This document shows, in pieces, positions 43,606-60,487 of a stretch of 64,000 nucleotides of DNA; the stretch's first letter is position 1; every line of letters starts with the position of its first letter. A model generated the notes under the pieces. The model saw nothing but the letters and a program-made list of their open reading frames with translations, was not told where the DNA came from and did not search any database. The position numbers and the translations under genes were made by a program. Source of the DNA: Saccharopolyspora sp. NFXS83 (lineage in GTDB: Bacteria > Actinomycetota > Actinomycetes > Mycobacteriales > Pseudonocardiaceae); assembly GCF_026241095.1 (NCBI RefSeq), contig NZ_JAPFGB010000023.1, positions 1 through 64,000 of the forward strand. The letters are read 5' to 3'.

Positions 43606-43740
43606 TTGTCAGCGGCGAAGCCCGCGAAGGCGCGGCGAAGCAAGCCTGCCTCGCGGCCGAAGGCCGTGCCTTGCGGCGAAGCCGTGCTCGGATGCGCGAA
43701 GCGCATAGCCCACGTCGAGAAGCCGCTCACCCGCTGAGGT
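43606..43740. repeat. GCGAAG-rich intergenic repeat region
   Basis: Between the aldolase gene and the convergent dehydrogenase gene the sequence repeats GCGGCGAAGC-like units (AGCGGCGAAGCC, GCGCGGCGAAGC, TTGCGGCGAAGCC, GCGCGAAGCGC, GAAGCCGC). Several can pair with each other as short hairpins. Short frames through it encode only Arg/Ala/Pro-rich nonsense, so it is regarded as non-coding, possibly a terminator-like or genome-wide repeat element. Confidence 0.5.
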
Positions 43741-43766
43741 TCCGCTACCGGGCAACCTGAGCGAAG

Positions 43767-44630
43767 TCACCCCGACGCCCCGGGAAAAGAAGCGAAGTAC
43801 GCCGCTGCCATGTCTTCGTTGCCGTGGCCTGCTTCTGCTGCGCGGCGAAACCGTTCGCGCACGGCTTCGGCCACGTCGAGCCGCAACTCGCCGGCCGCTT
43901 CGGCGATGAGGCTCGCGTCCTTGTGCGCGCCGCTCACGGTGAACGAGGGGGTGTAGTCCCCGGACACGATGGCGCCGCCCTTGATGTGGGCGTACGGGGA
44001 GTCGACGGCACCGCCGGAGATGGCGTCCAGGAACAGTTGTGGCCGCACGCCGAGGGATTCGGCGAGCGCGATCGATTCTCCGACGGCGTTGGTCAACGAC
44101 AGCACCCAGTTGTTCGCGGCGAGCTTGAGCCGAGTCCCGTCTCCGTGCGCCGCGTCCGCGCCGAGCCACAGGGTGCGGGCACCGACCGCGTCGAACACTG
44201 GTCCCGCCTGGTCGCGGATCTGTTCCGGTCCGGCGGCGAGCACCGTCAGCGTGCCTTGCACGGCGGGACCGCGGGTGCCGAGCACGGGTGCGTCCACCAG
44301 GGTCAGCTCGCCCGCGATCTCGGCGATCTCGGCGATGCCCGTCAGGCCGATCGTCGCCATCTGCAGCCATGGGGCGCCCGCGGGCAGTTCGGGGGCGGCG
44401 GCGCGCCCTGCGGCGGCGGTCGATTCCGCGTCGAGCAGCATCGTGACGAGCACGTCCGCGCCGCGCGCCGCGTCGGCCGGGCTTTCGGCGATGGTGGCGC
44501 CGTCGGCGGCGAGTTCTTCGGCGCGGGACCGGGTCCGGTTCCAGGCGCGCACCGCGAAGCCGTGCGCGAGCAGGTTGCGCACCATCGGTGCGCCCATCGT
44601 CCCGGTTCCGAGGAAGGCCACGGTTGTCAT
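43767..44630 (-). CDS. NAD(P)-dependent beta-hydroxyacid dehydrogenase (HIBADH-like)
   Basis: A 287-residue dehydrogenase of the 3-hydroxyisobutyrate/6-phosphogluconate family. It begins V-A-F-L-G-T-G-T-M-G-A-P-M, the NADP-binding G-x-G-x-x-G motif, and has the substrate-binding Gly-rich segment and catalytic Lys within S-G-A-H-K-D-A-S-L. ATG 44630 gives the family's normal N-terminus; the frame extends upstream without support. It is convergent with the sugar operon and monocistronic. Tartronate-semialdehyde reductase or glyoxylate reductase activity is possible. Confidence 0.9.
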   Translation of the reverse strand: MTTVAFLGTGTMGAPMVRNLLAHGFAVRAWNRTRSRAEELAADGATIAESPADAARGADVLVTMLLDAESTAAAGRAAAPELPAGAPWLQMATIGLTGIAEIAEIAGELTLVDAPVLGTRGPAVQGTLTVLAAGPEQIRDQAGPVFDAVGARTLWLGADAAHGDGTRLKLAANNWVLSLTNAVGESIALAESLGVRPQLFLDAISGGAVDSPYAHIKGGAIVSGDYTPSFTVSGAHKDASLIAEAAGELRLDVAEAVRERFRRAAEAGHGNEDMAAAYFASFPGASG

Positions 44631-44855
44631 CGTTCGCGTCCCAACATGTCGCTGATCGTCGGAGCGGGGGCCGGAGCCGCCCTGCGCTGATTGTGCGCGT
44701 CCGCCCGGCCCCCGTCCGCCGGGCGCTGCCGCGGCGAGTCCATGACCTTGGCTGGATCTTGTCGCTAAATGGCGTTGCCGCCACTCGAAACGCCGCTGGG
44801 CGCGCCGCATGCTTGTGGCAGCTCACCGAACAGCCTTCGAGAAGGGAACCCGACG

Positions 44856-45483: not shown

Positions 45484-46485
45484 ATGCAGGCACGGTTGTC
45501 CCCCGAGTCGGTCGCGCTGTACAAGTTCGCGGTGTCCACTCCGTCCTGGACGAACGGGCAGGCCGCGCGTGAACTGGGCCTGACCGAACGCGAGGTGGTG
45601 GACGCCGAGCAGTTGTTGCTGGCGCTGCGGCTGCTGCGCGTGTCGCCGGACGGCCAGCGCGAACACGACGCCGTGGGCCCGGAAACGGCGCTCGCGGAGC
45701 TGTTGTACGACGACGAGGCGGAGATCCGTCGCAGGCAGGTCGAGCTGGCGCGGATGCGTGGCGAGGTGATGTGCCTGCTGCCGACCTACTACGAGGGTCG
45801 GCGGGCGCAGCGGCGGCACGAGGCGATCGACGTGATCGAGGACGTCGCCACCATCAACCAGCTGATCGCCGACAGCGCCCGCCAGGCCGCCCAGCAGGTC
45901 CTGATCGCGCATCCCGGTGGAGGTATGGACGCCGGCAACATCGACCGCATCCTCCAGGTGGACTTGGACATCCTGGCGCGCGGAATCGAACTGCGGATCC
46001 TGCTGCAGCACTCGACGCGGTCGCATCCGCCGTCGCAGGAGCACGCCAGGAAGGTCTCCGAAGCGGGTGGGCTGATCAAGACGGTGCCGATCGTGCCGCG
46101 CCGGCTGCTGGTCTACGACCGGGAGGTCGCCTACATCCCGCTGGACGGCGGGGACGTCTCGAAGGGCGCGCTGCGCATCAAGGAACCCGCGGTGGTCGAC
46201 TTCGTGACCGCCACGTTCACGTCCATGTGGGATGCGGGGCGACCGATGGGGGTCGGTCCCGACGACGAGGTCGACGACATCCGCTCCGAGCTGACGCGTT
46301 CGATCCTGGGGCAGCTGGCGACCGGGGCGAAGGACGAACTGATCGCGCGGCGACTGGGGATGTCGGTCCGGACCTGCCGCAGGCACATCGCGGCGATCAT
46401 GTCGCACCTGCGGGCGGAGAGCCGGTTCCAGGCGGGTGCTCTCTCGGAGCACCTCGGCCTGCTCGAAGACGAGGGGTACCGCTGA
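45484..46485 (+). CDS. LuxR-type regulator with TrmB-like N-terminus
   Basis: A 333-residue regulator. The N-terminus (Y-K-F-A-V-S-T-P-S-W, A-A-R-E-L-G-L-T-E-R-E-V-V-D-A) is a TrmB-like winged helix, the middle (residues about 120-240) resembles a PLD-like sensor domain, and the C-terminus is a GerE/LuxR HTH (I-A-R-R-L-G-M-S-V-R-T-C-R-R-H-I). There is no receiver domain. Such proteins are frequent pathway-specific regulators in actinomycetes. AGGAGGAG lies just before ATG 45484. It heads the putative biosynthetic locus and stands beside a small peptide gene. Confidence 0.88.
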   Translation: MQARLSPESVALYKFAVSTPSWTNGQAARELGLTEREVVDAEQLLLALRLLRVSPDGQREHDAVGPETALAELLYDDEAEIRRRQVELARMRGEVMCLLPTYYEGRRAQRRHEAIDVIEDVATINQLIADSARQAAQQVLIAHPGGGMDAGNIDRILQVDLDILARGIELRILLQHSTRSHPPSQEHARKVSEAGGLIKTVPIVPRRLLVYDREVAYIPLDGGDVSKGALRIKEPAVVDFVTATFTSMWDAGRPMGVGPDDEVDDIRSELTRSILGQLATGAKDELIARRLGMSVRTCRRHIAAIMSHLRAESRFQAGALSEHLGLLEDEGYR

Positions 46486-46497
46486 TTCGGCGTATTT

Positions 46498-46518
46498 GCA
46501 CCCTCGCGATGCGGGTGC
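46498..46518 (+). terminator. Short hairpin after the LuxR regulator gene
   Basis: GCACCC (46498-46503) pairs with GGGTGC (46513-46518) 13 bases after the stop. Only 6 bp and no T-run, so a weak terminator at best; another small stem CTTCG-TTG-CGAAG lies at about 46568-46580. Confidence 0.35.
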
Positions 46519-46668
46519 GCGTGGTAGTTCGCTGCCAGTCAGGAAGCTGACAGCCGACGTATCTGGACTTCGTTGCGAAGCACGCACGATGATTGTGTCA
46601 CCGAGGCAAGGGGTTAATCGAAAGTCTCGGAACCACAGTCGCAGCACTTCGCAAAAAAGGGGACCACA

Positions 46669-46845
46669 GTGAACGCGAAGACCACTTCCATGGTGATCAT
46701 TGCCGGCGCGCTCGTTTTCCCGCACGTGGCAGAGGGAGGCACCCCGGGGCTCGCCGGTGGTTCCGCCATCGTGTCGGAATCCGCTCTGGGATTCGGCGCG
46801 CAGGACGGCAACGGCAACGGCTGGCGGATGACGAACGCGGTGTGA
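46669..46845 (+). CDS. 58-residue putative secreted/signalling peptide
   Basis: A 58-residue peptide that starts (M)N-A-K-T-T-S with a hydrophobic core M-V-I-I-A-G-A-L-V-F and ends D-G-N-G-N-G-W-R-M-T-N-A-V. The N-terminal half looks like a weak signal sequence and the C-terminal half is Gly/Asn-rich and polar. GTG 46669 is preceded by an excellent ribosome binding site, AAAAAAGGGG at 46652-46661, in a 183-base intergenic region. It lies between a LuxR/TrmB regulator and a hotdog protein. It could be a peptide pheromone or a RiPP-like precursor; no modification enzyme of a known RiPP class is nearby. Confidence 0.6.
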   Translation: MNAKTTSMVIIAGALVFPHVAEGGTPGLAGGSAIVSESALGFGAQDGNGNGWRMTNAV

Positions 46846-46902
46846 GCGCCTCCCACTTTGCGACGAGGACATGAGGCGACCAGGCCCGGGAATGAGGATG
46901 TG

Positions 46903-47307
46903 GTGAACCCGAACAAGGTGCGCAGCCACGTTGAGATCGACCACGTCGTCGGCCCGTCGGACACCGCGCAGCGCTGGGGCGGCGATCTCCCGGTGCTGGC
47001 GACCCCGGTTCTGGTGTGGTTGAGCGAGGTCGCCGCCGTCGAATCCCTCGAAGCGGCGCTCGACGAGGACGAGGCGAGCGTGAGCGTCCGGCACGACGCG
47101 CGGCAGCTGACCACCGTCGTCGAAGGCAGTGCCGTGGTCGTCCGGGTCACCTCCGTCGGCGCCTCCCCGCGGGTCGCCGTGTTCGACATCGAGGCGAGCG
47201 ACCACAACGGGATCATGTTCCGCTCGATGCACGTCCGGGAGATCGTCAAGGTGCACGGTTCGGACGACGTCTGCCACGGTTACCGCGGGTTGTTCGGCGT
47301 GCGCTAG
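46903..47307 (+). CDS. FlK-like hotdog thioesterase
   Basis: A 134-residue hotdog-fold protein resembling fluoroacetyl-CoA thioesterase FlK. The three FlK catalytic residues have counterparts: Thr34 (L-A-T-P), Glu42 (L-S-E-V, eight residues on, as in FlK Thr42/Glu50) and His64 (V-R-H-D-A). The substrate is unlikely to be fluoroacetyl-CoA, and these proteins occur widely as housekeeping or pathway thioesterases. GTG 46903 has GAGG at 46894-46897; GTG 46900 is an alternative. Confidence 0.75.
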   Translation: MNPNKVRSHVEIDHVVGPSDTAQRWGGDLPVLATPVLVWLSEVAAVESLEAALDEDEASVSVRHDARQLTTVVEGSAVVVRVTSVGASPRVAVFDIEASDHNGIMFRSMHVREIVKVHGSDDVCHGYRGLFGVR

Positions 47308-47533
47308 TCCGCCGCGAAATCCGGTCGGCAGCCGGACGCCGATCGGGTCCATTCGGTGCCGCGGACGGCCGAACCGCACCCCGTCATTCTTCTCCCTCGC
47401 GCGACCGCATCAGCCGTTGAATGCGATTTAGAGAATTATTCCCCGGAAGCAGTGCGCCCTGAATCGTTCCTTTCTCGTTCGGTGGCCGCTGTTCGAGTGA
47501 AGGCGAATTCAGGCTATCCGGAAAGTGGGCGAC

Positions 47534-48232
47534 ATGGACGTGGAACTGATCGTGTTCGACTGCGACGGCGTGCTCGTAGACAGCGAACGGCTCAGCGCCG
47601 AGGTGCTGCGGGACATGGCAGCCGAACTGGGGATCGCCTTCACCTCGGGCGCGGCGCTGGAGCACCTCCGGGGACGCAAGGTCGCCGAGTGGGTGGCGGA
47701 ACTGGCCGGCCTGCGCCGGGGCGGGGTGCCCGCCGACTTCACTGACGAATTCCGCAGGCGCACGGCCGAGGCGTTCGACGCGCAGCTGGTCCCGGTACCG
47801 GGAGTGCGCGAGGTCCTCGACGTCGTGGACGTGCCCTACTGCGTCGCGTCCAGCGCTCCGCTGCACAAGATCCACCACACGCTCGGGCTCACCGGACTGC
47901 TGTCGTACTTCGGCGACCGCGTCCACAGCGCGTACGAGGTCGGTTCCTGGAAACCGGACCCGGACCTGTTCCTGCACGCCGCCCGCGACGCCGGGGTCGA
48001 CCCCGCGCACTGCGTCGTCGTCGAGGACAGCGTTCCCGGCGTCCGCGCCGGAGTCGCCGCAGGCATGACCGTCCTCGGTTACGCCCCGCCCGGCAGCGGG
48101 ATGGGCCCGGTGCTCGCGGAACGTGGCGCGCACCCCTTCCCCGCGATGTCCGAACTGCCGCGGTTGATCGACCGGCTGCGGAGCTCGGGAGGTCTCGTCG
48201 ACGCGGTGGCGCACCCGTCCGCCGCGTCCTGA
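47534..48232 (+). CDS. HAD phosphatase, beta-phosphoglucomutase-like
   Basis: A 232-residue HAD enzyme with V-F-D-C-D-G-V-L-V-D-S-E (Asp9 and Asp11), C-V-A-S-S-A-P (motif II), the Lys in W-K-P-D-P-D-L and V-V-E-D-S-V-P-G. It is of the same subfamily as the HAD at 37409 but clearly not a recent copy. Next to a transaldolase-family gene it may dephosphorylate the transaldolase product. ATG 47534 is preferred; GTG 47525 is possible. Confidence 0.88.
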   Translation: MDVELIVFDCDGVLVDSERLSAEVLRDMAAELGIAFTSGAALEHLRGRKVAEWVAELAGLRRGGVPADFTDEFRRRTAEAFDAQLVPVPGVREVLDVVDVPYCVASSAPLHKIHHTLGLTGLLSYFGDRVHSAYEVGSWKPDPDLFLHAARDAGVDPAHCVVVEDSVPGVRAGVAAGMTVLGYAPPGSGMGPVLAERGAHPFPAMSELPRLIDRLRSSGGLVDAVAHPSAAS

Positions 48233-48269
48233 ACGTCCTTCACCGGTACGAGAAGCGAGGTTGATCCAC

Positions 48270-49484
48270 TTGTCACGCGTTTTGGAAAAGCTGCAGCGCA
48301 CCCACGACACGGCCGAGATCTGGTGGGACTCCTCACCGCTCGACTTCCCCGCTTGGCGCGACGGGCTGCTCGCCTCCGCGCCGGACTCCGCGACCCGCGA
48401 GCGCTGGGCCGGGCGGCTCGACCGGTTCCTGGATCCCGAGGATCCGGGCAGATCGCTGGTGCGGGGGGTGACGACGAACCCGTCGCTGGTGTCGGCGAGC
48501 GTGCTCTCCGGTTCCCGCAAGTGGGCGGGGTGGTTGCGCGAAACCGGGCTCACCGACCCTGAGGACGCGTTCAGCACCGTCTACGAGGAGGTGCTGCGCC
48601 GGGCCGCGAACCACATGCGACCGCAGTGGGACGCCACCGAGGGCCGCTACGGCTGGGTCTCCGGCCAGCTCGACCCGCGGGTGATGTTCCAGGCACAGCG
48701 GATGCGGGAGCAGGGCAGGAGGTTCGCCGCGATCGCGCCGAACCTGATGGTGAAGGTGCCCGGCACCGCGCAGGGCTACCAGGTGGTCCGCGACCTGGTA
48801 GCCGAAGGCATCTCGATCAACGGGACGTTGTCGTACACGGTGCCGCAGTTCGCGGCCTGCGTGCGAGCGGTCGAGGACGGGTTGGTCGAAGCACGGGCCG
48901 CAGGCCGAGACCTCTCCCGGTGGCGCGCGGTGTTCACGCACATGATCGGCCGGTTCGGCGCGAACGTCGACCTGCAGCTGGAGGCCGCCGCGCGGGGCAT
49001 CACCTTGGAGACCCGCGACCTGCGGTGGGCGGAACTGGCGATCCTCAAGCGGATCCACTCGATGATCCGGCAGCGCGGGCTCCCGATCAAGCTGCTGCTG
49101 TCGAGCCTGCAGACCGACGATCCCGCCGACGGCTGGCTCAGCGCTCACCTGGAGCAGAGCGCGGGTGCGGACATCGCCTACACCTGCAAGCCGTCGTTCA
49201 TCGCGGAACTCCTCCGCCGCGAGGACGAGTTCGGCGAGTTCCGCCCCGGTGCCATCGACGACGAGGTGCCCGACGACGTGCTGCGCAAGCTCGACCGGCT
49301 CCCGTCGTTCCGCGACGCCTACGCCGTCAACGGCATGGCACCCGCGGAGTTCGGGCAGTACGGCTGCTTCATCTCCACCTACGCCGAGGTGATGCAGAAC
49401 AACCGGGCGCTGCTGGACTTCGCCGCCCGCCAGGCGCACCAGGGAGACCGGCACCGGACGCCGCTGCTGGCGGCCTCCAGCTGA
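48270..49484 (+). CDS. Transaldolase-family enzyme
   Basis: A 404-residue enzyme with the transaldolase signature R-G-V-T-T-N-P-S-L near residue 67, Schiff-base Lys162 in L-M-V-K-V-P-G-T, and G-I-S-I-N-G-T-L-S-Y-T. It is longer than classical TalB (about 317 residues) and differs in its N-terminal start T-H-D-T-A-E-I-W-W-D-S-S. As a housekeeping transaldolase would be misplaced here, a dedicated C3-unit transfer in the pathway is likely, for example to build an unusual sugar. TTG 48270 has GAGG at nine bases; TTG 48261 is an alternative start. Confidence 0.85.
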   Translation: MSRVLEKLQRTHDTAEIWWDSSPLDFPAWRDGLLASAPDSATRERWAGRLDRFLDPEDPGRSLVRGVTTNPSLVSASVLSGSRKWAGWLRETGLTDPEDAFSTVYEEVLRRAANHMRPQWDATEGRYGWVSGQLDPRVMFQAQRMREQGRRFAAIAPNLMVKVPGTAQGYQVVRDLVAEGISINGTLSYTVPQFAACVRAVEDGLVEARAAGRDLSRWRAVFTHMIGRFGANVDLQLEAAARGITLETRDLRWAELAILKRIHSMIRQRGLPIKLLLSSLQTDDPADGWLSAHLEQSAGADIAYTCKPSFIAELLRREDEFGEFRPGAIDDEVPDDVLRKLDRLPSFRDAYAVNGMAPAEFGQYGCFISTYAEVMQNNRALLDFAARQAHQGDRHRTPLLAASS

Positions 49485-49522
49485 CCGTCCAGGGATCACG
49501 ACTACGCAAGGGAAAGAGGAAC

Positions 49523-50320
49523 ATGCACCGGTCCATCACGTTGTGGAGCCATCCCCGTTCGATGTCGACGGCGCTGGAGCGCTCCTTCATCGAACGCGGG
49601 GACTTCACGGTCTTCCACGAGGAGTTCGCCTACCTGTTCTTCGTGCACGAGCAGCGCGCCGACATCCCGCACAAGAACCCCGACCCCGACCACCCGATGA
49701 CCTATCCGGACATCCGGGACCGCATGCGCGCCGCGCGCCGCGAGGCCCCGGTGTTCCACAAGGACTTCCCCTACCACGCCTTGGAGGAATTGCTGGCCGA
49801 CCCGGAGTTCCTGCTGGGGCAGACCAACACCTTCCTCATCCGCGACCCCGCGGAGGCCGTGCTCTCGCACGCCACCGTGCACCCCGGTCTCACCCGCGAG
49901 GTGCTCGGCTACGAGCAGCTGGCCCGGCTGTTCGACGAGGTCCGCGAGCTGACCGGCGAGGTCCCGGCGCTGATCAACGCCGCCGACCTGGCCACCGACC
50001 CCCAAGGCACGCTCGCCGCCTACTGCGCCGCGATCGGGCTCGATTTCCGCGCAGAGGCGCTGAACTGGTCCTCCGGCGAGGCGCCGGAGTGGAAGACGTG
50101 GAGCGGCTGGCACGACGACGTGGCGGCCAGCAGCGGTTTTGCGAAACCCGCGCGCAACTACCGGTTCTCGCTGGCCGACGAGCCGCGGCTGCGGGAGTTC
50201 GTGGACCACTGCCAGCCCTACTACGACCACCTCGACCGGTTCCGGATCCACCCCGCGCCGCGCGGCGCGTTCGACATCCCCGAACAGGCGGGGCGGCCCG
50301 AGATGGAGACGACGCCATGA
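49523..50320 (+). CDS. Sulfotransferase-like protein (PAPS-dependent)
   Basis: A 265-residue protein with a sulfotransferase-type P-loop S-H-P-R-S-M-S-T-A-L-E-R (residues 9-20, the 5'-phosphosulfate loop) and a 3'-phosphate motif I-R-D-P-A-E-A-V-L-S-H (106-116). This family is often labelled sulfotransferase-like. The presence of cysC, cysD and cysN in the same gene set strongly supports a true PAPS-dependent sulfotransferase. AAGAGGA lies just before ATG 49523; the stop overlaps the SDR start. The acceptor is unknown, presumably a hydroxyl on the transaldolase-derived or N-methylated product. Confidence 0.82.
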   Translation: MHRSITLWSHPRSMSTALERSFIERGDFTVFHEEFAYLFFVHEQRADIPHKNPDPDHPMTYPDIRDRMRAARREAPVFHKDFPYHALEELLADPEFLLGQTNTFLIRDPAEAVLSHATVHPGLTREVLGYEQLARLFDEVRELTGEVPALINAADLATDPQGTLAAYCAAIGLDFRAEALNWSSGEAPEWKTWSGWHDDVAASSGFAKPARNYRFSLADEPRLREFVDHCQPYYDHLDRFRIHPAPRGAFDIPEQAGRPEMETTP

Positions 50321-51048
50321 GCATCGAGAAGGTCATCATCACCGGCGGCGCCAACGGCGTCGGACGTGCCCTGGTGCGGCGCTGCCTCGACGACGGCCAG
50401 ACCGTGATCGCGGGCGACATCGACGAACCCGGCCTCAAGGCCCTCGCCGACGAGCACGCGGGCCGGCCGCTGGAGGTGCACACCGTCGACGTCGGCGCGC
50501 ACGAGTCCTGCGACGCGTTCCTGGACGTGGTGCTCGCCGCGCACCCCGAGGTGACCGGCCTGGTGAACAACGCCGGGCTCTACCTGGGGCAGCCGGTGCA
50601 GCAGTACGACGACGCCACGATCGACCGGGTCATCGACGTCAACGTGAAGGGGCCGGTGTGGCTCTCGCGCCGGTTCGCCGGGCACGTCATCGCCGAGGGT
50701 CGCCGCGGCGCCATCGTCAACCTCGCCTCGGTGGCAGGTGAGGTCGGCAGCTCCGATGCGCTCTACGGCACGGTGAAGGCCGGTGTGATCGGCCTGACCA
50801 AGTCGAACGCGATGAACTTCGCCCCGCACCTGCGGGTGAACGTGGTCTCGCCGGGCCTGATCATCCGGACGGCCATCGCCGACCGGATCCCGGACTACCG
50901 CTACGCCGAGTACAAGCGCCAGGAGCAGCTCGACGGCGACATCACGCCCGAAGCGGTGGCCGACGTGTGCGCCTACCTCCTCAGCGACCGGTCCGCGCTG
51001 ATGACCGGAGCAGTCCTCCGCGCCGACAACGGCTGCTACCCGCGCTGA
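50317..51048 (+). CDS. Short-chain dehydrogenase/reductase
   Basis: A 243-residue classical SDR: T-G-G-A-N-G-V-G (residues 9-16), N-N-A-G (84-87), and the catalytic Ser138, Tyr150 and Lys154 (Y-G-T-V-K). It is translationally coupled to the sulfotransferase gene (ATGA), which argues that both act in the same pathway. Substrate unknown, probably a sugar-like alcohol. Confidence 0.92.
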   Translation: MSIEKVIITGGANGVGRALVRRCLDDGQTVIAGDIDEPGLKALADEHAGRPLEVHTVDVGAHESCDAFLDVVLAAHPEVTGLVNNAGLYLGQPVQQYDDATIDRVIDVNVKGPVWLSRRFAGHVIAEGRRGAIVNLASVAGEVGSSDALYGTVKAGVIGLTKSNAMNFAPHLRVNVVSPGLIIRTAIADRIPDYRYAEYKRQEQLDGDITPEAVADVCAYLLSDRSALMTGAVLRADNGCYPR

Positions 51049-51132
51049 GGAGCCTTCGCGGGCGGTTCGGGCAGCGGCTCCGCCGCTGGCGAGACACCGA
51101 TCGACTCCGTTGCGCGAAGACTTCCGAGCGGA

Positions 51133-51165
51133 ACTCCGCCGCCCGTCCCGCGCGGGCGGCGGAGT
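51133..51165 (+). terminator. Strong hairpin dividing the locus
   Basis: ACTCCGCCGCCCG (51133-51145) and CGGGCGGCGGAGT (51153-51165) form a perfect 13-bp stem in the 159-base gap between the SDR and the NAD-binding protein. No T-run follows. A second stem CAGCGGC-TCC-GCCGCTG lies about 51072-51088. Either partial termination or mRNA processing could occur here. Confidence 0.65.
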
Positions 51166-51207
51166 CCCCGCGCCGAATCCGTCCCGCATTCCCTCCGAGG
51201 AGGACGC

Positions 51208-52353
51208 ATGAACGACCGATCCGCATCGGACAAGCCGCTGATCATGTTGGTGGGCATGGGAGATCTGTCCTCCCGGGTGCTCACGATGCTGCTGAACGAC
51301 CCGGCGACCTCGCGCCTCGTCGTGGCCGGACGCGACGTCGAGGCGATCCGGCGCCGGGCGAACCTCGCCCGCTTCACCGCCGCCAACCTGGGCGTGCACG
51401 GCACCGTCGACGCCGTTCACGTCGACCTGCACGACGTGGACGCCACCGCGGAGACGCTGGCCCGGGTGCGCCCGGACATCGTGTTCATGGGCGCCTCGTT
51501 GCAGTCGTGGCGCATCATCACCGGCCTGCCGCCCGCCGTGTTCGACGAGCTGGACCAGGCCCAGTTCGGTCCGTGGCTGCCGATGCACCTCACCCTCAAC
51601 CACCTGCTGATGCGAGCGGTCCAGAGCTCCGGCGCGCAGCCGGTCGTCGTCAACGCAGCGTTCCCGGACGCGGTGGGGCCGGTGCTCGATGCGGTGGGGC
51701 TCGCCCCGACGGTCGGCGTCGGCAACGTCGCCAACATCATCCCGGCGCTGACGTTCGGGTTCGCCGACGAGCTCGGCGTGGACCCGGCGGCGGTGCGGCT
51801 GCGGCTGGTCGCCCAGCACTACTTCAGCCACTACGTTCCGCGCGCCGGCGACGCGGGCGGCGGTTCCTACCACCTCGACGTGGAGGTCGACGGACGAGCC
51901 CCGAGCAGGGACGTGCCGCACACCGACGTGTTCGGGCAGCTCAACGGCAGGCTCAAGCGCCTCGGCGGGGTGGACGGCCAGCTGCTCACGGCGTCCTCGG
52001 CGGTGCGGGTGCTCACCGGCATCGCCACCGACAGCGGGATCCACGCCCACGCCCCGGCACCGGGCGGTCTGCCCGGTGGTTACCCGGTCCGGGTGGGCCG
52101 CCACGGCGCGACCCTCGACCTGCCCGCCGGACTGCAGCGAGCCGAGGCCGTCCGGATCAACGAGCGCTGCCAGGCCGCCGACGGCATCGAGCACATCGAC
52201 GCCGACGGCACCGTGACCTTCACCGAACCCGAGATGTCGATCATGCGGCGGTTGCTCGGCTACGAGTGCAAAACCATGAAGCTCGCCGACAGCGCGGACC
52301 ACGCCGACGAGCTCGCCGCCAAGTACCGGGCGTTCGCCGCGGTGCACGCGTGA
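51208..52353 (+). CDS. NAD(P)-binding protein, saccharopine-dehydrogenase/MDH-like, unknown substrate
   Basis: A 381-residue protein with an N-terminal Rossmann segment L-V-G-M-G-D-L-S-S-R-V-L (residues 14-25), D-I-V-F-M-G-A-S and G-V-G-N-V-A-N, and a long C-terminal catalytic region. It recalls saccharopine dehydrogenase-like and malate dehydrogenase-like proteins, but I cannot assign a reaction. GAGGAGGA lies just before ATG 51208. With the SDR it gives the pathway two oxidoreductases. Confidence 0.72.
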   Translation: MNDRSASDKPLIMLVGMGDLSSRVLTMLLNDPATSRLVVAGRDVEAIRRRANLARFTAANLGVHGTVDAVHVDLHDVDATAETLARVRPDIVFMGASLQSWRIITGLPPAVFDELDQAQFGPWLPMHLTLNHLLMRAVQSSGAQPVVVNAAFPDAVGPVLDAVGLAPTVGVGNVANIIPALTFGFADELGVDPAAVRLRLVAQHYFSHYVPRAGDAGGGSYHLDVEVDGRAPSRDVPHTDVFGQLNGRLKRLGGVDGQLLTASSAVRVLTGIATDSGIHAHAPAPGGLPGGYPVRVGRHGATLDLPAGLQRAEAVRINERCQAADGIEHIDADGTVTFTEPEMSIMRRLLGYECKTMKLADSADHADELAAKYRAFAAVHA

Positions 52354-52399
52354 CCGGGCCCGCCCGACCTCTCGTCCACTCCCAGCTCCGGAGGACATC

Positions 52400-53170
52400 A
52401 TGACCGCACGCGCGACCACGCCCGAACCCGCCGTCGAAGACGGTGCGGGCCAGTACGTCCAATCCCTCGTGGACCACTGGGACGAGCTCATCGACTGGGA
52501 GCAGCGCAAAGCCGGTGAAGGCGGGTTCTTCGACTCGCTGCTGTCCCGCGCCGGTGCCCGCCGGGTGCTCGACGCGGCGGCCGGGACCGGCTTCCACTCG
52601 GTCACCCTCGCCGAAGCCGGCTACGACGTCACCGCCACCGACGGCAGCCAGGCGATGATCGACCGCGCCGCGAGCAACGCGCGATCCCGCGGCGTGCGGC
52701 TGCCGACGATCCGCAGCGACTGGAACGACCTGCACGACACCGTCGACGGCCGCTTCGACGCCGTGCTGTGCCTGGGCAGTTCGTTCCCGCACCTGTTCGA
52801 CCCGGCGGAGCGCGCCGCAGTGCTCCGCGAGTTCCACGACGCCCTCGAACCCGGGGGAGTGCTCGTCCTCGACCACCGCAACTTCGACGCGATCCGGGCG
52901 CACCGCTACCGCAGCAGCGGCAACTACTACTACTGCGGCGACGGGGTGCAGGTGTCGGTGGCCCACGTCGACTCCGAGCGATGCCGGTTCCGCTACGAGT
53001 TCGCCGGGCGGGTGACCCACCACCTGGAGGTGTACCCGGTGCTCGCCGACGAACTCGCGGACCTCTTGCGCGAAGCCGGATTCGACTCCGTCGAGCGGTT
53101 CGGCGACTTCCACGCCGAGTACGACCCGTACGCGGCCGACTTCATCATCCAAGTCGCCCGCAAGGCCTAA
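52400..53170 (+). CDS. SAM-dependent N-methyltransferase, glycine/sarcosine methyltransferase-like
   Basis: A 256-residue class I methyltransferase. Its N-terminus Q-Y-V-Q-S-L-V-D-H-W-D-E-L-I-D-W, motif I V-L-D-A-A-A-G-T-G-F-H-S (56-67), L-G-S-S-F-P-H-L-F, D-H-R-N-F-D and N-Y-Y-Y-C-G match the pattern of glycine/sarcosine N-methyltransferases of betaine synthesis. No dimethylglycine methyltransferase follows, so here it probably methylates an amino group of the pathway product. AGGA precedes ATG 52400. Confidence 0.86.
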   Translation: MTARATTPEPAVEDGAGQYVQSLVDHWDELIDWEQRKAGEGGFFDSLLSRAGARRVLDAAAGTGFHSVTLAEAGYDVTATDGSQAMIDRAASNARSRGVRLPTIRSDWNDLHDTVDGRFDAVLCLGSSFPHLFDPAERAAVLREFHDALEPGGVLVLDHRNFDAIRAHRYRSSGNYYYCGDGVQVSVAHVDSERCRFRYEFAGRVTHHLEVYPVLADELADLLREAGFDSVERFGDFHAEYDPYAADFIIQVARKA

Positions 53171-53182
53171 AAGGATCACCTC

Positions 53183-54511
53183 ATGAACGCATCAACGCAC
53201 CATGTGCGCACGCAGCGCAGCCCGCTGATCGGCTTCGTCGTCACGGTGCTGCTGACGAGCTTCGTCGCCGCGACCTACGGTTTCGGCTTCTACCTGTTCT
53301 CGCAGATCGTGACGGACATGCGTCTCGACCTGGGGTTCGGCTTCACCGCGGTCGGCACCATCACGGCCGCCGGTCAGCTCGGGTTCCTGGTGTTCGCCCT
53401 GTTGGGGACGTGGCTGTCCACCCGCATCGGTGGCGGCCAGATGACGCTGGGCTCGGCGATCCTGTGCGGGCTGTGCCTGCTACTGGTCCCGGTCACCGAC
53501 AACATCGTGGTGATCGGCGTGCTGCTGACCATCCTCGGCGGCACCGCCGCGTCGGTGTACGTGCCGCTCGTCGAGATCGTCGGGCGCATCATCGACTACA
53601 AGCACCGCGGCAAGGTGCTCGGGCTCATCTCCAGCGGCACCAGCTACGGCGTGTTCGTCAACAGCATGCTGGTGCCGTCGTTCGTCAGCGACGACAACTG
53701 GCGCGGGCTCTGGTACTCCGTCGGATTCGGCACGCTCATGGTCACCGCGGTCGCCGCGTTCACCTTCTGGCGGATCGGCATCCTGTCCAATGCGGACACG
53801 ACGGCCCCCACCGGCGGCGCGGCGCCCGACAGCGCCAAGGCCGGCTGGAAGATGGTGCTGGTCCGCTGGGTCGTGATCGTCTGGGTGATGAAGTTCCTCA
53901 ACGGCTTCGCGTCCATGCCGTTCCAGAACTACTTCTCCCCGTACCTGCGGGAAGATCTGGGCTTCGACATCGAGTTCGCCTCCTACGCCTGGGGTGTCAT
54001 CGGAGTCGTCGGCATGGTCGCCGGGTTCGCGGTCGGCTGGCTCTCGGACAAGATCGGCGTTCGTGCCGCGCTCGTCCTGTGCTACTCGTGCTTCTTCATC
54101 GCCGCCGCGCTGCTCGTCGTGGCGCCGGTGGGCGTGCTGCCGATCGTGTCCGGAGTGCTGTTCGGGCTCGCCTTCTACCCGATCTACGGCCTGGTTCCCG
54201 CCTACGTGGCCAAGACCGCCAGCGGGGCCGCGGCGACCATCATCTTCGGCGTCACCAACGTCACCCAAGGCGTCGGCGGCATCGCGGGCAACTACCTGGC
54301 CGGTGCGCTGAAGAACCTCACCGGCGGATTCATGTGGTACTACGTCGTGATCGCCGTGACGACCGTGGTCCTCGGAATCCTCACCCTCCAGCTCCCGCGC
54401 GAAGGATCCGTCGCCGGCGGACCCGATCAGGACGCGCCGGACCCCACTCCCGAAGCCGCCGACCCGGCGCCCGTTGCGGCGGCCCGTCCGATCACGGAGG
54501 TAGTGCGATGA
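53183..54511 (+). CDS. MFS transporter
   Basis: A 442-residue major facilitator with 12 predicted helices in two six-helix halves joined by a charged loop near residues 205-225, and a Pro/Ala-rich cytoplasmic tail of about 40 residues. No drug-efflux signature decides the substrate. It begins 12 bases after the methyltransferase stop and overlaps cysC by four bases, so it probably exports the product; uptake is possible. Confidence 0.9.
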   Translation: MNASTHHVRTQRSPLIGFVVTVLLTSFVAATYGFGFYLFSQIVTDMRLDLGFGFTAVGTITAAGQLGFLVFALLGTWLSTRIGGGQMTLGSAILCGLCLLLVPVTDNIVVIGVLLTILGGTAASVYVPLVEIVGRIIDYKHRGKVLGLISSGTSYGVFVNSMLVPSFVSDDNWRGLWYSVGFGTLMVTAVAAFTFWRIGILSNADTTAPTGGAAPDSAKAGWKMVLVRWVVIVWVMKFLNGFASMPFQNYFSPYLREDLGFDIEFASYAWGVIGVVGMVAGFAVGWLSDKIGVRAALVLCYSCFFIAAALLVVAPVGVLPIVSGVLFGLAFYPIYGLVPAYVAKTASGAAATIIFGVTNVTQGVGGIAGNYLAGALKNLTGGFMWYYVVIAVTTVVLGILTLQLPREGSVAGGPDQDAPDPTPEAADPAPVAAARPITEVVR

Positions 54512-55101
54512 CCCTTGCTCCGAGTTCCCCTTCGCCCACCACGACCGGAACCCGTTGGTGCACCTGCCGTCCCGGCGCGACGGTGTGGCTGACCGGCCTG
54601 CCCAGCGCGGGCAAGACCACCCTCGCCCTCGCCCTGTCCGCGGTGCTGCGCGAGGAGGGCCGCCGCGTCGAGGTGCTCGACGGCGACGTCATGCGCTCGA
54701 CGCTGTCGGCGGGCCTGGGCTTCTCCCGCGAGGACCGCGAAGCCAACGTCGCGCGGATCGGCCTCATGGCGGAAGTCCTGTCCCGCAACGGAGTGCTCAC
54801 CCTCGTCCCGGTGATCGCCCCGTTCGCCGAGAGCCGTGCCGCGGTGCGCGAGCGCCACGACCGCAGCGCCACGAACTTCCTCGAAGTGCACGTCGCCACG
54901 TCGGTGCAGCTGTGCGAGGCCCGTGACGTGAAAGGCCTCTACGCCAAGCACAAGGCGGGCCGGCTCACCGGGCTCACCGGGGTCGACGCGCCCTACGAAG
55001 CGCCGGCGCGGCCGGACCTGCGGATCGAGACCGACGCGCACAGCGTCGAGGAATCCGTGGTGAGCCTGCGGGCGCTGCTGTTCCAGAGGGGGTTGGCATG
55101 A
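54508..55101 (+). CDS. cysC: Adenylylsulfate (APS) kinase
   Basis: A 197-residue APS kinase that phosphorylates APS to PAPS. The P-loop is G-L-P-S-A-G-K-T-T (30-38), with D-G-D-V-M-R, the G-F-S-R-E-D-R segment and K-G-L-Y-A-K/A-H-K-A-G motifs of the family. It is a free-standing enzyme, not fused to CysN. The ATG overlaps the transporter stop; its own stop overlaps cysD. Confidence 0.94.
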   Translation: MTLAPSSPSPTTTGTRWCTCRPGATVWLTGLPSAGKTTLALALSAVLREEGRRVEVLDGDVMRSTLSAGLGFSREDREANVARIGLMAEVLSRNGVLTLVPVIAPFAESRAAVRERHDRSATNFLEVHVATSVQLCEARDVKGLYAKHKAGRLTGLTGVDAPYEAPARPDLRIETDAHSVEESVVSLRALLFQRGLA

Positions 55102-56036
55102 CCACGGTGGCCGGACCGATCACCGACATCGCCGAACTCGCGGGCGGCCTGTCGCACCTCGACGTCCTCGAATCCGAAGGCGTGCACATCATCCGGGAGG
55201 TCGTGGGGGAGTTCGAACGACCCGTGCTGCTGTTCTCCGGCGGCAAGGACTCCATCGTGATGCTGCACCTGGCGCTGAAGGCGTTCGCCCCCGCACCCGT
55301 CCCGTTCGCGCTGCTGCACGTCGATACCGGGCACAACTTCCCGGAGGTGCTCGAACACCGGGACCGCACCGCCGCGCGGCACGGGCTGCGGCTGCACGTG
55401 GCGTCCGTGCAGGAGTTCATCGACCAGGGGAGGCTGCGCGAACGTCCCGACGGCACCCGCAACCCGCTGCAGACCGAACCGCTGCTCGACGCGATCCGCA
55501 CCGGCCGGTTCGACGCCGTGTTCGGCGGCGGGCGGCGCGACGAGGAGAAGGCGCGCGCCAAGGAACGCGTGTTCTCGTTGCGCGACGAGTTCGGCGGCTG
55601 GGACCCGCGCAGGCAGCGGCCCGAGCTGTGGCAGCTCTACAACGGCAGGCACGCCCCCGGCGAGCACGTGCGGGTGTTCCCGCTGAGCAACTGGACCGAA
55701 CTCGACGTGTGGCAGTACATCGAGCGGGAGCGCATCGAACTGCCCGAGATCTACTTCGCGCACGACCGGGAGGTGTTCTCCCGCGCGGGGATGTGGCTGG
55801 CGCCCGGCGAATGGGGCGGGCCGCGCGAGGACGAGCGGCTGGTGAGCCGGACCGTGCGCTACCGCACCGTCGGGGACATGTCCTGCACCGGCGCCGTCGA
55901 ATCGGAGGCGGACACGGTGCCCAAGGTGATCTCCGAGATCGTCGAGTCCCGGATGACCGAGCGCGGTTCCTCCCGCGCCGACGACAAGCTGTCCGAATCC
56001 GCCATGGAAGACCGCAAACGTGAGGGGTACTTCTGA
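55098..56036 (+). CDS. cysD: Sulfate adenylyltransferase subunit 2
   Basis: A 312-residue ATP sulfurylase subunit of the PAPS-reductase-like fold. The PP-loop is S-G-G-K-D-S (47-52), followed by L-H-V-D-T-G-H-N-F-P, the G-G-G-R-R-D-E-E-K segment and S-N-W-T-E-L-D-V-W. With CysN it makes APS from ATP and sulfate. Coupled to cysC and cysN by overlapping codons. Confidence 0.95.
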   Translation: MTTVAGPITDIAELAGGLSHLDVLESEGVHIIREVVGEFERPVLLFSGGKDSIVMLHLALKAFAPAPVPFALLHVDTGHNFPEVLEHRDRTAARHGLRLHVASVQEFIDQGRLRERPDGTRNPLQTEPLLDAIRTGRFDAVFGGGRRDEEKARAKERVFSLRDEFGGWDPRRQRPELWQLYNGRHAPGEHVRVFPLSNWTELDVWQYIERERIELPEIYFAHDREVFSRAGMWLAPGEWGGPREDERLVSRTVRYRTVGDMSCTGAVESEADTVPKVISEIVESRMTERGSSRADDKLSESAMEDRKREGYF

Positions 56037-57307
56037 TGGGCGTCACCGAGCAGACCCGCGCGATGTCGTTGCTGCGCTTCGCGACCGCCGGTTCCGTGGA
56101 CGACGGGAAGTCCACTCTCGTCGGCCGGCTGCTGCACGACTCGAAGTCCGTGCTCTCCGACCAGCTGGAGTCGATCACCCGCGGTTCGCGCCACCTGGGC
56201 GAGACCGCGGTGGACCTCGCGCTGCTCACCGACGGCCTGCGAGCCGAACGCGAGCAGGGCATCACCATCGACGTCGCCTACCGGTACTTCGCCACTCCGC
56301 GCAGGCGGTTCATCCTGGCCGACACGCCCGGACACGTGCAGTACACCCGCAACATGGTGACCGGGGCGTCGACCGCCGACCTGGCCGTGGTGCTCGTCGA
56401 CGCCCGCCACGGCCTCGTCGAGCAGACCCGGCGTCACGCCGCGGTCGCGGCGCTGCTGCGGGTGCCGCACCTGGTGCTCGTGGTGAACAAGATGGACCTC
56501 GTCGGGTGGTCCGAGCAGCGGTTCACCGAGATCGTCGACGAGTTCGTCGCCTACGCCGCGTCGCTGGGCGCGGACGACGTCCTCGCCATCCCGATCTCCG
56601 CGCTGGAGGGCGACAACGTCGTGCTCCCGTCGCGGCACATGGACTGGTACGGCGGGCCGACCGTGCTGGAGCACCTGGAGGCGGTGCCCGCCGACCGCGA
56701 CCCGGCGGCTGATCCCGCGCGGTTCCCCGTGCAGCACGTGATCCGGCCGCAGACCGCGGCGCACCTCGACTACCGGGGCTACGCGGGCAGGTTGTCGTCC
56801 GGGACGCTGCGGGTCGGCCAGCGGGTGACCGTGCTGCCGTCCGGGCTCACCAGCACCATCGCCGCCATCGACGTCCTGGGAGTGCCCGCCGCCGATGCCC
56901 GCGCGCCCCAGTCGGTGACGGTGCGGCTGGCCGATGACCTGGACGTGAGCCGCGGCGACCTCATCGTCCCCGCCGAAAGCCCGCTGCGGCCCCGGCGCGA
57001 CGTGTCCGCGACCGTGTGCCACCTGCACGACCGGCCGCTGGTGCCCGGCAGACGGGTGCTGCTCAAGCACACGACCAGGACGGTGCAGGCGATCGTGCGG
57101 GACATCGAGTACCGGCTCACCCCGGAGACGCTCGGCCGCACACCCGCTCCGGAACGGCTGGAGGTGAACGACATCGGCGGTATCGCACTGCGCACCGCGG
57201 AACCGCTGCCGGTGGACTCGTACGCGGCATCGCGCACCACCGGATCGCTGCTGCTGATCGATCCGTCGGACGGCGCGACGTTGGCGGCCGGTATGGCATC
57301 GGAGTGA
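56036..57307 (+). CDS. cysN: Sulfate adenylyltransferase subunit 1 (GTPase)
   Basis: A 423-residue translation-factor-like GTPase. G1 is A-G-S-V-D-D-G-K-S-T near residue 17, followed by R-G-I/Q-G-I-T-I-D-V-A-Y-R-Y-F, D-T-P-G-H and N-K-M-D. Its GTP hydrolysis drives CysD. There is no C-terminal APS kinase fusion, consistent with the separate cysC. The ATG overlaps the cysD stop (TGATG). No cysH, cysI or sirA is present in the window. Confidence 0.95.
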   Translation: MGVTEQTRAMSLLRFATAGSVDDGKSTLVGRLLHDSKSVLSDQLESITRGSRHLGETAVDLALLTDGLRAEREQGITIDVAYRYFATPRRRFILADTPGHVQYTRNMVTGASTADLAVVLVDARHGLVEQTRRHAAVAALLRVPHLVLVVNKMDLVGWSEQRFTEIVDEFVAYAASLGADDVLAIPISALEGDNVVLPSRHMDWYGGPTVLEHLEAVPADRDPAADPARFPVQHVIRPQTAAHLDYRGYAGRLSSGTLRVGQRVTVLPSGLTSTIAAIDVLGVPAADARAPQSVTVRLADDLDVSRGDLIVPAESPLRPRRDVSATVCHLHDRPLVPGRRVLLKHTTRTVQAIVRDIEYRLTPETLGRTPAPERLEVNDIGGIALRTAEPLPVDSYAASRTTGSLLLIDPSDGATLAAGMASE

Positions 57308-57390
57308 TCGGCGATTCGCATTCCCGCGGGGCTGGCATACTTTCCGGTCGAATAGTGACGACGATCCGGAAAAGTTGACGAGGAGCTTTC

Positions 57391-58221
57391 GTGCAGGAGT
57401 GGGAACTCGGTCGAGTCCACCGCAGCAGCATCGGCGATGTTCGCTGGGATCGCCTCGGCGAAGAGGAGAAGGAACCGGTCGTGCTCTTGCACGGCACGCC
57501 CTTCTCCTCTTTTGTCTGGCGAGGCGTCGCCCGCGCGTTGGCGCCGCATTTCCGGGTGTACGTCTGGGACATGCCGGGTTACGGCGCGTCGGACAAGCAC
57601 GACGGCCAGGACGTGTCGCTGGCCGCGCAGGGGCAGGTGTTCGCGGAACTGCTCCAGCACTGGGAACTGGACCGGCCCGCCGTGATCGCGCACGACTTCG
57701 GCGGCGCCGTCGCGTTGCGCGCGCACCTGCTGCACGGCGCGCGGTACGAGCGGCTCGCCGTGGTCGACCCGGTGGCGCTCGCCCCGTGGGGATCGCCGTT
57801 CTTCCGGTTGATCGGGCAGCACGTGGAGGTCTTCGAACAGCTGCCCCCGGCCATGCACCGGGCGCTGGTGCGCGAGTACATCAGGTCGGCGAGCCACCGC
57901 GGCCTCGACGACGCCCTGGTCGACGCGCTGACCGAGCCGTGGCTGGGGGAATCCGGGCAGCCGGCGTTCTACCGCCAGATCGCCCAGGCGGATCAGCGCT
58001 ACACCGACGAAGTGCAGCACTCCTACGGCGAGCTCGACCTGCCCGCGATGGTGTGCTGGGGAGCGGAGGACACCTGGATCCCGGTGCAGAAGGGCCACGA
58101 ACTCGCCGGACTCGTTCCCGGCGCGCAGTTGCGGGTGATCCCGGGAGCGGGGCACCTGGTGCAGGAGGACGCGCCCGCCGAACTGGCAGCGGCCCTTTTC
58201 GCATTCCTCCGCGACCGGTGA
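57391..58221 (+). CDS. Alpha/beta hydrolase with Asp nucleophile (dehalogenase/epoxide-hydrolase-like)
   Basis: A 276-residue alpha/beta hydrolase. The oxyanion motif is L-H-G-T-P (33-37), the nucleophile elbow reads A-H-D-F-G-G with Asp102 instead of Ser, and the acid and base are in E-D-T-W-I-P and G-A-G-H (about His255). An Asp nucleophile is typical of haloalkane and fluoroacetate dehalogenases and epoxide hydrolases. AGGAGC lies 10 bases before GTG 57391. It follows cysN after 83 bases and may belong to the locus, or be independent. Confidence 0.85.
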   Translation: MQEWELGRVHRSSIGDVRWDRLGEEEKEPVVLLHGTPFSSFVWRGVARALAPHFRVYVWDMPGYGASDKHDGQDVSLAAQGQVFAELLQHWELDRPAVIAHDFGGAVALRAHLLHGARYERLAVVDPVALAPWGSPFFRLIGQHVEVFEQLPPAMHRALVREYIRSASHRGLDDALVDALTEPWLGESGQPAFYRQIAQADQRYTDEVQHSYGELDLPAMVCWGAEDTWIPVQKGHELAGLVPGAQLRVIPGAGHLVQEDAPAELAAALFAFLRDR

Positions 58222-59806: not shown

Positions 59807-60487
59807 ATGCCCACCATCGCCATCGTCGGAGCCGGACCCGGACTCGGCCTGTCCATCGCCAAGGCCTTCGGGGACAACGGATTCTCCGTCGCGCTCGTCG
59901 CCCGCACCCAGGAGAAGCTCGATGCCCTCGCCGCTGAGCTGAACGAGGCCGGGATCGAGGCCGCCGGCTTCGCCGCCGACGTCATGGACCCGGCCTCGGT
60001 CGCCGCCGCCTTCGACCTGATCAAGGAGCGCTTCGGAGCCGTGGACGTCCTGGAGTACTCGCCCGCCCCGCACACCCCCGTCCCCGGCCTGAGCAACCCG
60101 GCCCCGTTGCAGGCGAGCAGAGCGAACATCCAGCCGCAGATCGACTACTACCTCTACGGCGGGATCGCAGCCACCGAGCAGGTGCTGCCCACCATGATCG
60201 AGCGCGGCAGCGGCACGATCCTCTACACCACCGGCGGCACTTCCCAGGACCCGCTCGCCGGGCCCGCCGAGTTCACCACGACCACCATCGGCAGCGGTGC
60301 GCTGCGCACCTACGCGTTGAAGCTGCACCAGGCGACCGCGGGCACCGGTGTGCACGTCGCGCACGTCCCGATCTTCGCCTGGATCGGCACCGGCGGGCCC
60401 GAGACCCAGCCCGAAACCATCGCTCAGCACTACTGGACCGCCCACACCACGCGCGACGGAGCTGAGCAGCCCTACGTCGCCCTGTGA
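59807..60487 (+). CDS. SDR-fold oxidoreductase lacking the usual YxxxK motif
   Basis: A 226-residue Rossmann protein with V-G-A-G-P-G-L-G (residues 7-14), and the V-A-L-V-A-R-T and A-A-D-V-M-D-P segments of SDRs. The canonical catalytic Y-x-x-x-K is missing: the corresponding stretch reads G-S-G-A-L-R-T-Y-A-L-K-L. It may be an atypical SDR or NAD-binding regulator. GAAAGGGAG lies before ATG 59807. Probably controlled by the divergent HxlR gene. Confidence 0.85.
   Translation: MPTIAIVGAGPGLGLSIAKAFGDNGFSVALVARTQEKLDALAAELNEAGIEAAGFAADVMDPASVAAAFDLIKERFGAVDVLEYSPAPHTPVPGLSNPAPLQASRANIQPQIDYYLYGGIAATEQVLPTMIERGSGTILYTTGGTSQDPLAGPAEFTTTTIGSGALRTYALKLHQATAGTGVHVAHVPIFAWIGTGGPETQPETIAQHYWTAHTTRDGAEQPYVAL

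What the first reader, a model, noticed from the sequence alone, without database searches (positions are those of the whole stretch)
45484..58221. Undescribed locus for a sulfated, N-methylated small metabolite with its own PAPS supply
The locus contains the full route from sulfate to PAPS (CysD, CysN, CysC) and one sulfotransferase-like protein, with no sulfate-reduction genes. It also has a transaldolase-family enzyme with a HAD phosphatase, an SDR, an NAD-binding protein, a betaine-type N-methyltransferase, an MFS exporter and a LuxR regulator. No PKS, NRPS, terpene or cyclitol cyclase is present, so antiSMASH-type rules could easily miss it. Gene order and overlapping stop/start codons tie the exporter to cysC-cysD-cysN, and the sulfotransferase to the SDR. 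The product class (C3-extended sugar-like backbone, sulfate ester, N-methyl amine, possibly an osmolyte or antibiotic) is inference.
Basis: partly seen in the sequence, partly recalled or inferred. Interest (0 to 1): 0.85.

Follow-up and report, generated by a model that had tools for sequence, protein, structure and literature searches.

The report
Conserved sulfation cluster of unknown product
This stretch holds a conserved ten-gene pathway that makes its own activated sulfate and most likely builds, sulfates, methylates and exports an unknown small molecule; its sister clusters carry a virus-derived protein shell, so comparing the two could show what such shells do.

Summary
Ten co-directional genes, HAD-TAL-ST-SDR-NADb-MT-MFS-CysC-CysD-CysN (47525-57307), recur in the same order, as far as contigs reach, in 8 of 8 Streptomyces type A loci read. 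Close TAL occurs in 8 of 392 Streptomyces genomes, each time in such a cluster. ST has a PAPS-sulfotransferase fold, MT is a diverged glycine/sarcosine methyltransferase paralogue, NADb has an LDH/MDH-like fold without sequence support. New: three Streptomyces loci carry the same CysCDN-HAD-TAL-NADb core but a family 3 encapsulin shell gene, another sulfotransferase and another MFS in place of ST, SDR, MT and MFS. In the TAL tree they nest among shell-less clusters, so the shell was probably added later. The product is unknown; whether sulfate stays on it or is a leaving group is open. PAPS-supplying sulfation clusters are known, so this is a new variant of a known kind.

The parts
45484..46485 (+). 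LuxR-type regulator (333 aa); window-specific at this position, most Streptomyces clusters have a SARP instead
   Evidence: Pfam GerE 29.6 bits; no hit in relatives; SARP in relatives
46669..46845 (+). small ORF, 58 aa, unknown; no hit in the loci searched
   Evidence: read from sequence
46903..47307 (+). hotdog thioesterase of FlK family; no hit in the loci searched
   Evidence: PF22636 60 bits, cut-off 27
47525..48232 (+). HAD phosphatase (sugar-phosphatase type)
   Evidence: PF00702 89 bits; best NCBIfam model 6-phosphogluconate phosphatase, below its cut-off (153 vs 211); fused to TAL in P0185
48261..49484 (+). transaldolase-like class I aldolase (TAL); likely start TTG 48270
   Evidence: PF00923 96 bits; Lys165 and Gln136 invariant in 20 of 20 aligned sequences
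49523..50320 (+). PAPS sulfotransferase (ST), PF19798
50317..51048 (+). short-chain dehydrogenase (SDR), overlaps ST by 4 bases
   Evidence: PF13561 149 bits; overlap
51208..52353 (+). NADb: NAD-binding protein with LDH/MDH-like fold, no Pfam or NCBIfam family
52400..53170 (+). SAM methyltransferase (MT), paralogue of glycine/sarcosine N-methyltransferase
   Evidence: NF051855 272.8 bits, cut-off 350; 5h02 E 1.1e-65; GSMT over the cut-off elsewhere in the genome, 486 bits
53183..54511 (+). MFS transporter, probable exporter
   Evidence: PF07690 114 bits; overlaps CysC
54508..55101 (+). CysC, APS kinase
   Evidence: named from its sequence; conserved order in relatives
55098..56036 (+). CysD, sulfate adenylyltransferase subunit 2
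   Evidence: PF01507 153 bits
56036..57307 (+). CysN, sulfate adenylyltransferase subunit 1
   Evidence: named from its sequence; conserved order in relatives
57391..58221 (+). alpha/beta hydrolase, possible accessory
   Evidence: 83 bases after CysN; homologue within about 15 kb of TAL in 4 Streptomyces type A genomes, but present in 52 of 121 Streptomyces genomes

Best explanation
A biosynthetic gene cluster for an exported small sulfated metabolite. Proposed order: the TAL-like class I aldolase joins a C3 ketol unit to an aldehyde (probably a sugar phosphate), HAD removes the phosphate, the LDH-fold dehydrogenase NADb and the SDR set the oxidation state of hydroxyl or keto groups, the GSMT-derived enzyme N-methylates an anion-bearing amine, ST transfers sulfate from PAPS made on site by CysD/CysN/CysC, and the MFS protein exports the product with the sulfate still on it. 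Shown: gene content, order, conserved linkage, predicted folds of ST and NADb, paralogy of MT. Inferred: substrates, reaction order, retention of the sulfate, export direction.
For: Conserved ten-gene order in 8 of 8 type A loci as far as contigs reach, and a reduced core in 3 of 3 type B loci. TAL in 8 of 392 Streptomyces genomes, all 8 in such clusters, and close TAL in only 1 of 297 genomes of the window's own family (own, E 1e-277; the next is 4e-25; the 5 same-genus genomes listed have none at 1e-20): the profile of a specialised rather than a primary pathway. HAD and TAL fused in P0185. 14 database contigs, including one of Puniceibacterium, seem to carry NADb, TAL and ST together by equal longest-contig length. 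Separate assimilatory locus with cysH in the own genome. ST fold. SARP regulator beside 7 of 8 type A clusters (not L005). SAM-recycling genes (MetK, MTHFR, adenosine kinase) upstream in 3 of the 6 type A loci read at least 5 kb upstream (L006, L008, L009; not L007, L068, L070), which fits heavy methylation. MT keeps an Arg that aligns with Arg of GSMT (R160; its role is recalled) and has a fixed change to basic residues within 166-169 in 8 of 8 cluster MTs.
Confidence: 0.55

Rival explanations
1. Sulfate is a leaving group, not part of the product: ST activates a hydroxyl so that an amine or carbanion displaces it, giving a strained N-ring or an alkene.
For: STs closest in fold are those of the curacin and olefin synthase pathways, which as recalled activate a hydroxyl for elimination. 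Type B STs are 53-54% identical to STs of five encapsulin loci with CysC, four of them with CysD and CysN in the stretch; the one of these whose ORFs I listed, L108, also has LysW-like, ATP-grasp-like and transketolase-like ORFs (by eye), a set that recalls azinomycin/vazabitide, where aziridine forms via sulfate elimination (Kurosawa 2022; only its reference entry seen; content recalled).
Against: No obvious eliminating enzyme in type A or B; the window ST matches another Pfam family than the type B STs, and is only 38-39% identical to the STs beside other shell genes. Fold ranks are tied within 1 Z.
Confidence: 0.2
2. A zwitterionic compatible solute (sulfated betaine, functionally like choline-O-sulfate) for salt stress.
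For: MT is a GSMT paralogue. Several carriers come, as recalled, from saline or alkaline habitats. MFS proteins can be importers.
Against: The genome already has a GSMT over the family cut-off, in a 569-aa ORF beside a MetK-like ORF. SARP regulators beside 7 of 8 type A clusters; the TAL gene is rare (8 of 392); type B lacks the MT.
Confidence: 0.1
3. A polymer or lipid decoration: the cluster makes and sulfates a surface glycan or envelope component.
For: HAD and TAL are sugar-phosphate enzymes; sulfation cassettes occur in capsule clusters (PMC11641403, search listing with start of abstract only).
Against: No glycosyltransferase, flippase or polymerase among the conserved ten genes.
Confidence: 0.05
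4. Ordinary sulfate assimilation operon with unrelated neighbours.
For: CysD and CysN are 73% and 60% identical to those of this genome's cysH locus.
Against: cysH-cysD-cysN lie elsewhere; conserved order with ST across genomes.
Confidence: 0.03

Closest known systems
Family 3 (natural product) encapsulin gene clusters (PMC8346489; passages and section 9 seen)
   Same: Three loci (L069, L071, L072) share CysC-CysD-CysN-HAD-TAL-NADb with the window and add the shell gene (NF041188, 334-336 bits, cut-off 180) and a sulfotransferase (PF13469 in the two scanned). Homologues of the window ST (38-39%) lie beside the shell gene in 7 further loci, in one of which the shell gene is in two pieces. The paper notes ST-SDR pairs, as here.
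   Different: The window and its genome have no shell gene. HAD, TAL, NADb and MT were found in none of the 12 other encapsulin stretches read.
adp cluster, sulfated adipostatins of Streptomyces davaonensis (PMC12135136, passages seen)
   Same: Dedicated APS kinase and two-subunit sulfate adenylyltransferase genes co-operonic with one sulfotransferase.
   Different: adp has a PKS for the scaffold; here the scaffold genes are TAL, HAD, NADb, SDR and MT.
Ascamycin/nucleocidin clusters (PMC9113183, passages seen)
   Same: Cluster-borne PAPS supply plus sulfotransferase (ascamycin).
   Different: Adenosine-based, with amidinotransferase, halogenase and tRNA-synthetase genes; none among the proteins scanned here.
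Glycine betaine synthesis (GSMT)
   Same: MT is a close paralogue of GSMT (5h02 E 1.1e-65).
   Different: Below the equivalog cut-off; 25 fixed differences between 8 cluster MTs and two GSMTs.
Azinomycin/vazabitide aziridine route (recalled)
   Same: Sulfate activation and a ketol-transfer enzyme (transketolase there, TAL here).
   Different: No amino-group carrier protein or ATP-grasp enzyme was noticed here.

Membership tests
PAPS-dependent sulfotransferase | sulfotransferase family profile and fold | tested here: met
PAPS-dependent sulfotransferase | binds PAPS and transfers sulfate | not testable with these tools
   needs an assay
Cluster with dedicated PAPS cassette (adp type) | CysC, CysD, CysN co-operonic with a sulfotransferase, separate from assimilation genes | tested here: met
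Cluster with dedicated PAPS cassette (adp type) | PKS scaffold gene | tested here: not met
   none of the nine cluster proteins scanned is a PKS; the rest are CysC, CysD, CysN
Family 3 encapsulin cluster | HK97-fold family 3 shell gene in the cluster | tested here: not met
   0 matches to NF041188 in the own genome; no ENC hit in the window
Family 3 encapsulin cluster | sulfotransferase-SDR pair (common, not universal) | tested here: met
   ST and SDR overlap by 4 bases
Glycine/sarcosine N-methyltransferase equivalog | NF051855 cut-off 350 bits | tested here: not met
   272.8 bits; another protein of the same genome scores 486
Transaldolase/FSA superfamily | TAL_FSA profile and Schiff-base lysine | tested here: met
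   96 bits, cut-off 27; K165 aligns with the Lys of the KIPAT motif and is invariant in 20 of 20
Canonical transaldolase equivalog | NCBIfam cut-offs; Glu in the VSIEVDP motif | tested here: not met
   79.2 vs 233.75 and 103.8 vs 367 bits; Gln136 aligns with Glu in the three PDB chains shown
LDH/MDH family | sequence profile of the family | tested here: not met
Azinomycin/vazabitide-type carrier-protein cluster | LysW-type amino-group carrier protein | tested here: inconclusive
   not seen among ORFs of the cluster; no profile search of the genome was made
Osmolyte synthesis | intracellular accumulation under salt | not testable with these tools
   needs culture

The most novel reading that the evidence does not exclude
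The window shows the older, shell-less form of a pathway that in some Streptomyces has been moved into, or tied to, a virus-derived protein shell: the shell gene and a sulfotransferase of another Pfam family replaced this ST, SDR and MT around one unchanged TAL/HAD/NADb/PAPS core. That would make the two cluster types a natural experiment on what encapsulin shells do in natural product synthesis, around a metabolite class assembled by an aldolase instead of PKS, NRPS or terpene enzymes, with sulfate possibly used as a leaving group.
Probability: 0.35. Interest if true: 0.75.

Novelty: new variant of a known kind. Interest (0 to 1): 0.6.

Why it matters
The conserved set gives a concrete handle, TAL + NADb + CysCDN, on a cluster type without PKS, NRPS or terpene genes that rule-based finders may pass over. 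The sister clusters with an encapsulin shell offer a direct test of an open question, what family 3 shells do: the same core enzymes occur with and without the shell, even within one genus.

Tried and rejected
Plain sulfate assimilation: rejected, since the genome has cysH, cysD and cysN on contig C4 and a further CysD/CysN set on C56. Scattered homologues: rejected. NADb as a member of LDH/MDH by sequence: not supported; only the fold agrees. NADb by context: of 21 plasmid records with a match I read five; in three rhizobial ones it sits beside an alanine-racemase gene, a TIGR01459 HAD and, in two of the three, a DMT transporter, in Planktothrix and Martelella in other settings; this hints at amino acid chemistry but fixes no reaction. 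TAL in plasmids: 4 records, all Shinella; the one read has it among sugar-use genes and served as outgroup. Class-wide search with NADb: only the own genome of 394 at E 1e-40. Sequence search of PDB with ST: best E 0.0086, mostly antibody chains, no sulfotransferase among the 60 of 136 rows shown. Viral contigs with the TAL alignment: 0 of 38 candidate stretches confirmed. Alpha/beta hydrolase as a core gene: doubtful; it lies within about 15 kb of TAL in 4 type A genomes but is also present in 52 of 121 Streptomyces genomes. Promoter and terminator scans were uninformative: 0 promoter-like sites, 2 terminator-like sites against 4.6 expected. ORFs in scripts were picked by a GC-content rule, which can miss or misplace genes. 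Literature: ten searches listed no paper whose title or abstract start describes a transaldolase-sulfotransferase cluster of this kind; only open-licence full texts are held, and the supplement of PMC8346489 could not be read.
Full report
What is there. The window is contig C16:1-64000 of a 6.9 Mb draft genome; the closest named database copies of NADb and ST are from a Saccharopolyspora (88% and 80%), so it probably belongs to that genus (inference). From 45484 to 58221 the genes run on the + strand. Spacing: HAD-TAL 28, TAL-ST 38, ST/SDR -4, SDR-NADb 159, NADb-MT 46, MT-MFS 12, MFS/CysC -4, CysC/CysD -4, CysD/CysN -1 bases. Domains were assigned with Pfam and NCBIfam.

Conserved linkage. The single genome-contig scan with TAL gave 6 loci, all Streptomyces; a search of 392 Streptomyces genomes gave 8 with TAL at E 1e-60 or better, three of them the same genomes. 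I read DNA of 11 distinct loci. In 8 (L005-L010, L068, L070; 'type A') the order HAD-TAL-ST-SDR-NADb-MT-MFS-CysC-CysD-CysN matches the window as far as the held sequence reaches: ST in 8 of 8; SDR, NADb and MT in 7 (L005 ends after ST); MFS and CysC in 6 (L006 ends after MT); all of CysCDN in 4 (L008, L009, L068, L070), the rest being cut by contig ends. In the window's own family only the own genome of 297 has the close TAL; the next match is 37% over part of the protein, and the 5 same-genus genomes listed have none at 1e-20. A SARP-type regulator gene lies beside 7 of 8 type A clusters (L005, with 2.5 kb upstream, has none), a second MFS gene beside 5. MetK, MTHFR and an adenosine-kinase-like gene lie upstream in 3 of the 6 type A loci read at least 5 kb upstream (L006, L008, L009 yes; L007, L068, L070 no). 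MetK and MTHFR are named by eye from their translations.

Not the assimilation genes. PF01507 finds four places in the own genome: the cluster CysD, two neighbours on C4 taken as cysH and cysD, and a further cysD on C56. On C4 a 570-aa ORF that looks like a sulfite or nitrite reductase precedes cysH, cysD and cysN (partly by eye).

The sister clusters with a shell. L069, L071 and L072 ('type B') hold CysC-CysD-CysN-HAD-TAL-NADb, then a gene matching NF041188, family 3 encapsulin shell protein (334.6-335.6 bits, cut-off 180; L069 also), then a sulfotransferase (PF13469 in L071 and L072), with another MFS; this ST, SDR, MT and MFS were not found in the cluster (a weak SDR hit lies at the edge of L071, outside the cluster). 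CysN of L071 is split in two frames. NF041188 is over its cut-off in 15 of 392 Streptomyces genomes: 3 are type B. I read 12 further encapsulin stretches: 11 of the other 12 over the cut-off, plus G836, whose shell gene is in two pieces below the cut-off; the remaining one, L080 (G733), was seen only over 3.8 kb (ENC and type B-like ST), and the other 25 genomes with weaker matches were not examined. Five of the 12 have a type B-like ST (53-54%) with CysC, four of them with CysD and CysN in the stretch; seven have a homologue of the window's ST (38-39%) beside the shell gene (in G836 the shell gene was not found by tblastn). None of the 12 shows HAD, TAL, NADb or MT. The own genome has no shell gene; of eight other type A genomes searched, two have one elsewhere (G691, G717).

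Which form is older. In a maximum-likelihood tree of 34 TAL proteins with five outgroup TALs, among them the Shinella sugar-use TAL, the three type B rows, with P0160 (not typed), form one clade (100/100) that nests inside a well supported clade in which rows with the window's ST family branch both nearer and further out. For database rows the ST label rests on equal longest-contig lengths (14 NADb-TAL-ST triples, and for P0173 and P0181 TAL-ST only), an indirect sign; their SDR and MT are unknown. The simplest reading is that the layout without shell is older and that shell plus second ST were acquired once. Five of 31 inner branches are weak.

What it does. I commit to a secreted, sulfated small molecule whose carbon frame is built by the TAL-like aldolase and trimmed by HAD, NADb and SDR, N-methylated in type A, and supplied with PAPS on site (confidence 0.55). 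The main rival is that sulfate is a leaving group, as recalled for curacin-type and aziridine pathways (0.2). An osmolyte role is less likely, given SARP neighbours, rarity and a separate GSMT locus (0.1). No step has been shown biochemically.

Compared with what is known. Cassette-type PAPS supply with a dedicated ST is published for adipostatins (PMC12135136, passages) and ascamycin (PMC9113183, passages). Family 3 encapsulin clusters with ST-SDR pairs are published (PMC8346489, passages and section 9), without the word transaldolase in the main text. No paper on this gene set came up in ten searches of the held library (listed under Tried and rejected). Hence: a new variant of a known kind.

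Noticed in passing
window 46903-47307: FlK-family hotdog thioesterase ORF (PF22636, 60 bits) between LuxR and HAD; no hit in the Streptomyces clusters searched.
   Followed up: partly
window 46669-46845: 58-aa ORF after LuxR, no homologue found in the relatives; could be a small peptide or chance.
   Followed up: no
window 40519-44810: Genes that look by eye like dihydroxyacetone/erythrulose kinase, RpiB, class II aldolase and a 6PGDH-type dehydrogenase (the last on the other strand): a C4 sugar or threonate use set just upstream.
   Followed up: no
window 59807-60487 and L069:1315-1995: Similar-looking SDR-like proteins (by eye) near both the window cluster and one type B cluster; GlxA-type AraC genes also lie near both (window 60521-61543, L069:14877-16037).
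   Followed up: no
L071:11998-13241: CysN of one type B cluster is split into two frames; not repaired or explained.
   Followed up: no
L075 (own genome C56:48000-63000): A further sulfate-activation set: CysD, CysN and an ORF with a CysC-like part; no sulfotransferase noticed by eye.
   Followed up: partly
L042, L043, L044: Rhizobial plasmids carry a NADb homologue (42-45%) beside an alanine racemase gene and a TIGR01459 HAD, a possible second pathway using this uncharacterised family.
   Followed up: partly
L113-L119: Encapsulin loci with a homologue of the window ST directly beside the shell gene; L113, the one whose ORFs I listed, also has AMP-binding/NRPS-like and aldo-keto-reductase-like ORFs (by eye).
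   Followed up: partly
L006, L008, L009, L070: A second transaldolase-type gene (with the usual Glu motif in L006) lies near type A clusters; in L006, L008 and L009 also a PabAB-like gene.
   Followed up: partly
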